The notes under the pieces are model-generated. The model made no database searches. It worked only from the letters and a program-made list of their open reading frames with translations, and was not told where the DNA came from. A stretch of DNA of 64,000 bases from Planctomycetota bacterium (GTDB lineage Bacteria > Planctomycetota > MHYJ01 > JACQXL01 > JACQZI01), in NCBI GenBank assembly GCA_016207825.1, contig JACQZI010000005.1:124001-188000 (forward strand), given 5' to 3'. Positions within the stretch are counted from its first letter, which is position 1; every line of letters begins with the position of its first letter. Position numbers and translations under genes: made by a program. Positions 19,900 to 46,996 of this stretch are shown piece by piece.

Positions 19900-20163
19900 T
19901 GTAACGCCCCATACCCTAATAGTATATCCCTGTCATCCTAATACCATTCCCTATATACCCTAATACCATATCCTATAGTCCCCAATACCATATCCTATAG
20001 CCCCTGATAGCATATCCTATAGCCCCTAATGATATACCCTATAGTCTCTAACAACATACCCTATAGTCCCTAATGGCATATCCTATAGTCCCTAATGGCA
20101 TACGCTATATATCCTAATACTATTCCCTATAGTTCCTAATACCATACGCTATATATGCTAGCC
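19900..20163. repeat. Tandem array of ~12 degenerate 22-bp units
   Basis: Units follow each other without spacers at exactly 22 bases: starts at 19944, 19966, 19988, 20010, 20032, 20054, 20076, 20098, 20120 and 20142 are clear, with two weaker units before them. The plus-strand unit starts CCATATCCTATAG and ends TCCCTAATA. The array is full of stop codons in all frames and lies in a 630-base gene-free stretch (19809-20438), which otherwise holds only a G-quadruplex motif, an arm of the dispersed repeat family at about 20263-20297, and unremarkable sequence. Not a CRISPR: there are no spacers. Confidence 0.9.
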
Positions 20164-44001: not shown

Positions 44002-45345
44002 TTATTCTCCCAACACCTGCGGCAGGAGCCAGGCATAGGCAAGCGGCAGGTAGATAACCTGTGTCGGTGTTATTTCATCCCAGCCGGCATAGTCGCGGGT
44101 AAAAACAATTATCTTCTTTGCCTTTATCCGCCTGCCGAAATTCACCAACGCCCACCTGCCGGATTTCTCCAGAGGGAAATCATATAACGCGCCGACCAGG
44201 TGCCTGACCAATCCGTGCTTCAGGCAGAAGCCGGTAACATCGCTCGTCTCGCTCGCCCAATATTTTATATCTTTTATCCACGGAATAAACCGCAATTCGT
44301 TATAGACTAAATTATCAATAAGCGCTTTCCGGTCTGTGCGGGTATCAATTGGCTGGAATGAATCTGCCAGCATATTCCTTAACCCATTGTCATTGAAATA
44401 TAAAATCGGCGCACCTTTATCAGGATAAGGGAAAACCTTATTAACGCAATAATCGGATTCAAGCGCATCTATAAAAGCCGAAACCTTGCGCCATTCTGCC
44501 TTGATTTCCTGTGCTAACTTATTAACGTTTAAGACCGTACCGTGTATGCGGGTTAACTCGTCCAGAATCTTCCTTTGTTGGGTTTGCTCTAACCGTTCTT
44601 GCTTGGACTTGGGCTGGTGGGAAAACTGAGCCTGGTAAATCTTCCGCAAAATAGCCGGACGCTTGGAAAGGGTATATTCCTTAACCGTTTCGGCGTATCC
44701 GCCGTAACGCAGGTATCCATCCAAAACAGGAAGCGCTAAGGTGTAAAAACTGCTTTTGGGCAAATCCTTTATTTTCTCCGGCAGTTTGTATTTAGGCAGG
44801 TAAATATTATTCGGGTTAAGCATCCGGTTCCAGTATTCCGTGTAAGAGACCATACCGAGTTCAAATCTTTGAATATTGTCATTCTGACCCCGATTACTGT
44901 CGGGGGAAGAATCTCTAACCGAACTCGCCATAATTAGTTTACTATTATCCATTAACTTTTCCAGCTCCTGAACCATGGCGGAATCAAGGTGCTGGACTTC
45001 ATCAAGGAAAATCCAGAGCCGTGTTTTCTTATCCGGGCTGAATCCGTTAATGAATCCGGCGACATCATCCGCTCCGGTGAATCCTTCGCGCGTCAGGACA
45101 TCGTCCAGATTAAAATAGAATATGGCGGAAGGCGGAATCGACTTTTCCTTGATAAGGTGTCTGATAGTCAATTGAAGAAGAGTGGTTTTTCCCGCACCGC
45201 GCGGGCCGGAAAGGAGTATCGGCTTATCGCCTTTAAGCGCGTCCAATAATTTGGGCAATAATGAACGGTCAAAAGACCAGCTTATGAGTTTGGATTCATC
45301 CTGGCGCCAAGGGTTTTGCTGTAGGAAATTCTCCGCATTAAACAT
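44002..45345 (-). CDS. AAA ATPase with DUF4143-like C-terminal domain
   Basis: 447 residues from ATG 45343-45345, which has AAAGGAG just upstream. Walker A is LLSGPRGAGKTTLLQLT near residue 39, Walker B LWIFLDEVQHLD near 115. The C-terminal half follows the AAA_14/DUF4143 pattern (ILDELTRIHGTVLNVNKLAQ, a winged-helix part, then YNELRFIPW and a late KKIIVFTRDYAG). These ATPases are common, patchily distributed and of unclear role; some are linked to mobile DNA or toxin-like systems. Between Walker B and sensor, an in-frame repeat (44877-44915) replaces the usual short loop. No partner gene is adjacent. Confidence 0.88.
   Translation of the reverse strand: MFNAENFLQQNPWRQDESKLISWSFDRSLLPKLLDALKGDKPILLSGPRGAGKTTLLQLTIRHLIKEKSIPPSAIFYFNLDDVLTREGFTGADDVAGFINGFSPDKKTRLWIFLDEVQHLDSAMVQELEKLMDNSKLIMASSVRDSSPDSNRGQNDNIQRFELGMVSYTEYWNRMLNPNNIYLPKYKLPEKIKDLPKSSFYTLALPVLDGYLRYGGYAETVKEYTLSKRPAILRKIYQAQFSHQPKSKQERLEQTQQRKILDELTRIHGTVLNVNKLAQEIKAEWRKVSAFIDALESDYCVNKVFPYPDKGAPILYFNDNGLRNMLADSFQPIDTRTDRKALIDNLVYNELRFIPWIKDIKYWASETSDVTGFCLKHGLVRHLVGALYDFPLEKSGRWALVNFGRRIKAKKIIVFTRDYAGWDEITPTQVIYLPLAYAWLLPQVLGE
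44877..44915. repeat. In-frame TGTCATTCTGA...GAAGAATCTC element inside the ATPase gene
   Basis: TGTCATTCTGA, then a hairpin with CCCCGA/TCGGGG arms, then GAAGAATCTC. It is 39 bases, 13 codons, and encodes RDSSPDSNRGQND on the minus strand. It matches the right half of the intergenic element at 41199-41283 in layout and flanks, with a different hairpin core. Confidence 0.75.
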
Positions 45346-45364
45346 AAAAACTCCTTTCCTTTTT

Positions 45365-45424
45365 GCCACAAAGACACCAAGCCACTAAGAAAAATTAGAC
45401 CTTTCTTTGCGCCTTTGCGGTGAA
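45365..45424. repeat. Dispersed inverted repeat (GCCACAAAGACACCAAG ... CTTTGCGCCTTTGCGGTGA)
   Basis: Two arms facing each other directly upstream of the ATPase gene. The same arms occur at 54671-54746 and, alone or altered, near 17222, 20263, 21951, 24122, 45581 and 52714. Confidence 0.7.
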
Positions 45425-45426
45425 CC

Positions 45427-45492
45427 TTGTCAACTCAAATCTTCCACTTTGTCAAGTCTTTTCTTCCATTTTGTCAACCCAAATCTTCCGTT
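45427..45492. repeat. Three tandem 22-bp units starting TTGTCAA
   Basis: Units at 45427, 45449 and 45471, each TTGTCAA followed by a T/C-rich stretch ending TCTTCC plus three bases. Different sequence from the neighbouring array but the same 22-base period. The following stretch to 45775 holds two direct copies of AAGTCGGTTATTTC (about 45619 and 45732) and nothing else recognisable. Confidence 0.8.
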
Positions 45493-45775
45493 TATTCTAT
45501 AAAACTCAATATAATCAACAACCATCTTCAATATAGTGAGTTTCTTATGTGCATTATATTAAAAATGTATCTTTTCATACCCCTCTGTGCCCTCTGTGGT
45601 CGTATTTTACCCCAAAAAAGTCGGTTATTTCGGCACGTTTTGCAGATAAAACCTACTTTTATTACAAGAATCTATTCAATTTTACCCATCAAATGGGCTG
45701 ATTACGTGTTATATTGAGTATTATACCATAAGAAGTCGGTTATTTCAACAATTTCTGCCTATGGGGGTGGGGGTA

Positions 45776-46083
45776 CCCTACCCCTACTCCACCCTAACCA
45801 TACCTCTACTCCATAGTGACCATTACTATACTCCGGTGTAATCATACCCCTACTCCCCTGTAATGGCTATAATACTCTGGTCTAACCATACCTCTACTCT
45901 ATGGTGACCATACAGATACTCCCCTCTAACCATACTCCTATCCCCTTGGTGCGTAGCCTCCCCTTGGGGATAGCCATATCTATACTCTATAGTAGCCATA
46001 CCTCTACTCCATGGTGACCATACCTCTACCTAGGTATAATCACACCCCTACTCCATGATAGGAATAGATATACTTACAGAGTG
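45776..46083. repeat. Tandem array of ~13 degenerate 22-bp units
   Basis: Units start at 45776, 45798, 45820, 45842, 45864, 45886, 45908, 45930, 45952, 45974, 45996, 46018 and 46040, all exactly 22 bases, with a decayed one at 46062. The best units start CCATACCTCTACTCC and end ATGGTGA; the junction ATGGTGACCAT is a near-perfect dyad. The array is non-coding, lies in the 800-base gene-free stretch 45346-46147, and begins beside a G/C-rich palindrome centred on GGTACC (about 45763-45784). Confidence 0.9.
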
Positions 46084-46147: not shown

Positions 46148-46996
46148 TTATTTTGCCGGTCGGTGGGAGATGATCTCCTTGCAGGCCGTAATAAATTTAT
46201 CTACCCGCTCCTTTTGCTTTTCATCCTTTAGGTCTTTTTTGAACTTCTCGCAGTAATTCAGCCAGTTATCCTTGCCCAAGGTTTTCTCCAATATTTCCAG
46301 GGCATTTTCATTCCAGATTTTCTCTACTCTTTCTTTATTAAGAGTTGCGGCATCTATCCCTCGCTCCTCCAGTGTTTTTTTTAGGTATCGGTCGTCTTTA
46401 TCCGGATAATAATCGATATTTATAGTATTTTTGTCTTCCCCAGTTGCAAGATAATCTAATATTTTTCGTGCCGATGAATCTCCGGGAATCTTAGATAGGA
46501 CATATTTAGCCGGATATTTCTCTGAAAGCGAATCGGACCAATCATCCAAAAGAGGGTAGATTTCCCTATCGTTTTCAAATAGTATGCGTTTTTCCCCGTC
46601 CTGATTAAGGGCAAGATAATTAACAAGGATAGAGGAACAAGAATTATCTCGACTTTCAAAGGCATTTAACAGATAAATCGCTCGTGATGTAGCTTTTACC
46701 CAATTGGGCAGTCTTTTATCTCTGGGTGTTTTTACCTGCTCTTCCAAAAAATCCTTGCATTTTTCGACAATCGAGAATTTAAGATCCGACAAACCAACAT
46801 CATTCATAAGAAATGCCAGCATATCTGTTTCTTTGATTTCATCCCTGAGAGACTTTATGTCATTACCAAACTTTTCTTTTTCCTTCATCCATTTGGGGTC
46901 TTCTTGCGATTGCCCATCGGCCTTGATAACCGTATAAACTGCGAACGAGGCTGCCAGAATGCCTAACAATGCCATTGTTTTAAAAATCTTTTGCAT
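46148..46996 (-). CDS. Secreted or membrane-anchored protein, companion of the giant surface protein
   Basis: 282 residues. The N-terminus MQKIFKTMALLGILAASFAVYT is a signal peptide or anchor. The rest is highly charged and helical (WMKEKEKFGNDIKSLRDEIK; TLGKDNWLNYCEKFKKDLKD); no family recognised. It starts 20 bases after the giant gene's stop with AAAGGA as ribosome-binding site, so it is co-expressed with it. Function unknown. Confidence 0.8.
   Translation of the reverse strand: MQKIFKTMALLGILAASFAVYTVIKADGQSQEDPKWMKEKEKFGNDIKSLRDEIKETDMLAFLMNDVGLSDLKFSIVEKCKDFLEEQVKTPRDKRLPNWVKATSRAIYLLNAFESRDNSCSSILVNYLALNQDGEKRILFENDREIYPLLDDWSDSLSEKYPAKYVLSKIPGDSSARKILDYLATGEDKNTINIDYYPDKDDRYLKKTLEERGIDAATLNKERVEKIWNENALEILEKTLGKDNWLNYCEKFKKDLKDEKQKERVDKFITACKEIISHRPAK

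What the first reader, a model, noticed from the sequence alone, without database searches (positions are those of the whole stretch)
45776..46083. Second 22-bp array 26 kb away, same period and partly similar unit
Thirteen units of exactly 22 bp, again non-coding, again between two minus-strand genes. Read on the minus strand, units of both arrays end in G-x-TATGG; about 8 of 22 consensus positions agree. Two independent arrays with equal period in 64 kb point to a genome-wide system rather than chance expansion. The junction ATGGTGACCAT forms a dyad at each boundary of the best units, a possible protein site repeated every two turns.
Basis: partly seen in the sequence, partly recalled or inferred. 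Interest (0 to 1): 0.78.

Follow-up and report, generated by a model that had tools for sequence, protein, structure and literature searches.

The report
Capped two-helical-turn DNA repeat arrays
An uncultured planctomycete scatters dozens of non-coding DNA blocks between its genes, each about twelve copies of a 22-letter unit that is private to that block; the shared spacing of two DNA turns and the usual G/C-rich cap suggest a structural job, perhaps protein docking, that has not been described as far as we could search.

Summary
The array is real: 13 in-register 22-bp units at 45782-46067, non-coding, between two minus-strand genes. The two window arrays are not detectably similar in sequence (z = 1.4), but the claim of a genome-wide system is right. 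In 676 kb of unbiased sample of this 2.89-Mb Planctomycetota (Candidatus Brocadiia) genome there are 16 arrays of period 22 and 6 of period 21, and nearly every other tandem period is an in-frame protein repeat. Arrays occur in two families of the order. None was found in 1.4 Mb of unrelated genomes. The 36 period-22 arrays studied have private units, 11.8 +/- 2.3 copies, no slipped register in 388 units, and a G/C run at one end in 33 of 36. Duplicated arrays diverge unit by unit, without homogenisation, and in two of four pairs conserved columns changed significantly less. A conserved TA step recurs in 32 of 36. RNA folding gives no consistent signal. Best reading: a new class of capped, two-turn DNA docking arrays for a sequence-tolerant DNA-binding protein. 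The class is well supported; the mechanism is inferred (about 0.4).

The parts
45782..46067 (+). 22-bp array, 13 units in exact register
45763..45790 (+). G/C cap GGGGGTGGGGGTACCCTACCCCTACTCC: outer G-rich arm, inner C-rich arm next to the array; can fold as a hairpin, or possibly as a purine-motif intrastrand triplex (inferred from sequence)
   Evidence: caps of this kind enriched at array ends
45427..45762 (+). AT-rich leader, shared with arrays on contigs C32 and C10 (78-79% identity) and in part with C7
44002..45369 (-). AAA_14/DUF4143 ATPase; co-duplicated with the leader and array on C32, but absent from array-bearing relatives, so unlikely to be the machinery
46148..46996 (-). protein of 282 aa with no Pfam match, other neighbour of the array
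19915..20156 (+). first 22-bp array of the window (11 units), unit CCTAATACCATACCCTATAGTC; relative on contig C12
20198..20224 (+). G-rich run GGGGTAGGGGGTATAGGGGGCCAGGGG beside the first array

Best explanation
Each element is a non-coding DNA platform of about 12 binding sites at exactly two helical turns (22 bp), capped at one end by a G/C run or hairpin. The most likely mechanism is that a DNA-binding protein with loose specificity, reading TA/GGTA steps rather than one fixed sequence, occupies the sites cooperatively on one face of the helix, with the cap as boundary or nucleation point. The many copies would act as chromosome-organising or compaction sites. Shown: the class, its period, copy number, caps, strict register, shared TA/GGTA signature and unit-by-unit evolution. 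Partly shown: lower substitution in conserved columns, which fits selection but also site-specific mutation. Inferred: the protein, cooperativity and the chromosome role.
For: Non-coding tandem arrays in the unbiased sample are almost all of period 21-22. No unit of 388 is out of register and no off-multiple lag wins in any array, at about 31% pairwise unit divergence. Copy number is narrow, 11.8 +/- 2.3. Unit identity hardly falls with separation (0.69 to 0.67), and columns more than about 6 bp apart vary almost independently, so most arrays do not look like recent unit copies. Duplicated arrays align collinearly (0.69, 0.90, 0.83 against 0.48-0.62 in shifted register). Conserved columns changed less in W2/C32 (identity 0.78 against 0.51, p = 0.005) and W1/C12b (0.88 against 0.46, p = 1e-5). 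Conserved columns are overdispersed (mean z 4.0). A conserved TA step occurs in 32 of 36 arrays (permutation 19.9 +/- 2.7) and GGTA/TACC is 3.4-fold enriched. 33 of 36 carry a G/C run of 5 or more at an end, against 39 of 328 random windows. No preference for gene orientation.
Against: No protein identified, and no single core sequence is shared by all arrays. No 11-bp sub-period or A-tract phasing. Two of four duplicate pairs show no significant slowing at conserved columns (p = 0.10 and 0.42), and overdispersion can also arise from shared ancestry. Some arrays were homogenised at some time (C10a) or have higher-order repeats (L075, L071b). Position is not strictly conserved between species.
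Confidence: 0.4

Rival explanations
1. Ordinary minisatellites: replication slippage or unequal crossing-over makes neutral arrays, and 21-22 bp is simply the step this cell's machinery favours, helped by an unstable G/C cap.
For: Tandem architecture; homogenised cases C10a and C12b, higher-order repeats in L075, L062 and L071b; G/C triplex motifs are reported as a source of instability in bacteria (PMC4666352); synteny changes beside an array.
Against: Neighbouring units are hardly more alike than distant ones, little linkage across the unit, no homogenisation since three array duplications, strict register, narrow copy number.
Confidence: 0.27
2. A non-autonomous mobile element family: leader plus cap plus array moves or is copied as a module, and the array is a recognition or packaging region.
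For: Paralogous modules W2/C32/C10a/C7, W1/C12b, C3/C10b, L258/L270/L266; an IS630-like HTH gene beside C10a and C7; array plus gene exchanged at the RlmN locus between G000 and G001.
Against: No shared element ends or target duplications seen; most array pairs share no sequence; W2/C32 and L258/L270 look like larger segmental copies that include genes.
Confidence: 0.17
3. The arrays are transcribed into repeat RNAs that act as scaffolds or sponges.
For: AT-rich promoter-like stretches upstream of several caps.
Against: Fold energies of 22-bp arrays are mostly no better than dinucleotide or column shuffles; no Rfam match; strict register is more natural for DNA.
Confidence: 0.11
4. The two window arrays are sites of one sequence-specific regulator, recognised through a shared G-x-TATGG motif and the ATGGTGACCAT dyad.
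For: Shared TA/GGTA composition.
Against: Unit similarity at chance; dyad in 2 of 13 units.
Confidence: 0.03

Closest known systems
Borg tandem direct repeats (PMC9879509)
   Same: Pervasive tandem arrays through one lineage's genomes, many intergenic, unit sequences differ between arrays
   Different: Borg units are perfect, about half are in ORFs, lengths vary (20, 18 and 21 nt in one example), A-enriched, formed recently; here units are about 31% diverged, intergenic, fixed at 21-22 bp and usually G/C-capped
Plasmid iterons
   Same: Direct repeats of about two helical turns in exact phase (own knowledge)
   Different: One sequence beside a rep gene; here private units at many chromosomal sites
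Bacterial minisatellites/VNTRs
   Same: Head-to-tail intergenic repeats
   Different: Narrow copy number, constant period genome-wide, no neighbour similarity
G/C intrastrand triplex motifs, BoxC/PIT (PMC4666352)
   Same: G-arm/C-arm fold-back at many intergenic loci
   Different: Here it caps a repeat array; triplex folding not tested

Membership tests
VNTR/minisatellite | Head-to-tail tandem units | tested here: met
VNTR/minisatellite | Unit turnover by local copying (neighbours more alike, linkage across the unit) | tested here: not met
   exceptions C10a, L075, L062
VNTR/minisatellite | Copy number variable among strains | not testable with these tools
   no strain series held
Iterons | Exact helical phasing of direct repeats | tested here: met
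Iterons | One recognised sequence with an adjacent rep gene | tested here: not met
   private units; no rep-type Pfam match among the neighbour genes scanned
CRISPR | Constant repeats separated by unique spacers | tested here: not met
   units contiguous; one Cas1 in the genome, not next to the window arrays
RT-made arrays (retron or DRT type) | Reverse transcriptase in the genome | tested here: not met
   PF00078 absent
Borg tandem repeats | Perfect units of varied length, genic and intergenic | tested here: not met
   definition
REP/BIME-type repeats | One shared palindromic sequence | tested here: not met

The most novel reading that the evidence does not exclude
A new class of bacterial chromosomal element, order-wide in this lineage, in which selection keeps spacing (two turns), site number (about 12) and a G/C cap, but lets each copy keep a private sequence: a bacterial DNA-structure code comparable in logic, not homology, to satellite or nucleosome-positioning arrays.
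Probability: 0.38. Interest if true: 0.85.

Novelty: new variant of a known kind. Interest (0 to 1): 0.68.

Why it matters
If upheld, roughly 70 array loci per genome (extrapolated) form a repeat class defined by geometry rather than sequence. That makes a testable question of whether bacteria have chromosome-structure elements read by spacing and step composition. It also warns assemblers: two contigs of a relative begin inside such arrays.

Tried and rejected
Similarity of the two window arrays (chance). RNA structure in 22-bp arrays (no consistent signal). DNA bending by 10-11-bp phasing (absent). Cap-end growth polarity (cap-proximal and distal units equal, p = 0.51). CC-to-GG word swaps as a special signal (not exceptional among transversions). 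Link to gene orientation (none). AAA_14 as the machinery (absent from array-bearing relatives). Reverse transcriptase (none). Rfam, phage and plasmid matches (none). Literature searches for a prior description found none in the open-access library; Kuenenia is reported to hold 260 short tandem repeats, period not given in the passages read.

Full report
OBSERVATION. The array exists as described: 13 units of 22 bp in register from 45782 to 46067, with no long open frame, between minus-strand genes at 44002-45369 (AAA_14/DUF4143 ATPase) and 46148-46996 (no Pfam match). The other window array is at 19915-20156. A Markov control of the sampled sequence gave no comparable periodic window. The units of the two arrays are not significantly alike (z = 1.37 against column permutations), and the ATGGTGACCAT dyad is exact at two boundaries only.

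GENOME. The window is contig C5:124001-188000 of a 2.89-Mb, 97.6% complete genome. SecY places it in Planctomycetota: the nearest named record is Candidatus Brocadiia isolate DeMMO3_52 at 96% SecY identity.

A GENOME-WIDE CLASS. Searching the array and its leader in its own genome found relatives on C32, C10, C7 and C12. A de novo period scan of stretches chosen without reference to arrays, 676 kb together with the window, gave 16 arrays of period 22 and 6 of period 21. All other tandem periods were in-frame protein repeats except three two-copy repeats at 132-133 bp. Scaling the 22-bp count gives roughly 70 per genome, an extrapolation. The same scan found arrays in G001 and in G003, another family of the order. 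It found no period-22 array in 1.38 Mb around SecY in 74 assorted genomes, nor in the class and phylum relatives sampled. Two G003 contigs begin inside arrays.

ANATOMY. Thirty-six period-22 arrays were framed by hand from these scans. They average 11.8 +/- 2.3 units. All sit between genes. Thirty-three have a G or C run of at least 5 near one end, against 39 of 328 random intergenic windows, and half have a G-run/C-run fold-back, the C arm usually next to the array. Most array pairs share no sequence, but small subfamilies do: W2/C32/C10a/L062, W1/C12b, C3/C10b and L258/L270/L266. What nearly all share is composition: a conserved TA step in 32 of 36 (permuted 19.9 +/- 2.7), GGTA/TACC 3.4-fold over intergenic DNA, and few AA/TT words. 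There is no 11-bp harmonic and no consistent RNA fold signal.

HOW THEY EVOLVE. Unit identity hardly changes with distance inside an array (0.69 next door, 0.67-0.70 beyond). Variable columns are linked only over a few bases. In three duplicated pairs the collinear register is by far the best (W2/C32 0.69, L258/L270 0.90, C3/C10b 0.83, against 0.48-0.62 shifted), so whole arrays were copied and their units then diverged separately. W1/C12b cannot be judged this way because its registers are nearly equal. Conserved columns changed less in W2/C32 and W1/C12b; the other two pairs are not significant. None of 388 units is out of register and no array prefers an off-multiple lag. The cores were chosen as in-phase rows, which favours this result, but the unselected scans also show only multiples of 22 for these arrays. 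C10a shows that homogenisation can happen: it shares the leader of C32 but has a new, nearly uniform unit.

SYNTENY. At the RlmN gene, G000 and G001 both have a 22-bp array, with unrelated units and different genes on the far side; the G001 gene has its 93% relative on contig C18 in G000, also near an array. Arrays thus sit at, or take part in, rearrangements.

MACHINERY. AAA_14 has four copies in the genome, three beside arrays, but it is absent from order relatives that carry arrays. No reverse transcriptase is found and there is one Cas1. No DNA-binding partner was identified.

INTERPRETATION. Constant two-turn spacing, narrow site number, strict register and private sequence fit a DNA platform read by geometry and step composition better than slippage repeats, RNA or CRISPR-like systems. 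That a protein docks there is inference. Site-specific mutation rates could mimic the column test, and the literature search covered open-access papers only.

Noticed in passing
L068:4249-4542; L188:1622-1831; L197:7521-7646; L272:18186-18395: A second array type of period 21. Several have units that are palindromic hairpins with paired changes (e.g. GCCC-GCAA-GGGC / GCTC-TCAA-GAGC), and the L188 array has a strong fold signal (z to -9.5). They rarely carry the G/C hairpin cap (1 of 11).
   Followed up: partly
window 45427-45489; L051:7591-7643; L055:10710-10761: A different 22-bp direct repeat (TTGTCAACTCAAATCTTCCACT, about 3 copies) lies at the start of the leader of three arrays.
   Followed up: no
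L257:9000-9779, L258:8032-8580, L197:7341-7481: A repeated non-coding element with a sigma70-like promoter and, in L258, a terminator-like end, near arrays in two species; no Rfam match.
   Followed up: partly
L201:13700-13758; L259:9077-9135; L260:9289-9344; L261:10456-10488: Short interspersed repeat (core GAGGCTCGCCAAAGGCGGCAAGCACGGAATGACA) shared by G000 and G001.
   Followed up: no
L051:7004-7465 and L055 (reverse strand, about 0.5-0.95 kb beyond the C7a array): IS630-like HTH gene, 90% identical over 433 bp, beside two arrays that share the leader.
   Followed up: partly
L168:1-374 and L169:1-374: Two contigs of a relative begin inside 22-bp arrays, so arrays probably break short-read assemblies.
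   Followed up: no
L202:2169-2462; L223:15921-16212; L219:14292-14787: 21-bp tandem arrays in more distant planctomycetes (G024, G055) and in G007 of the same order; coding status not settled.
   Followed up: no
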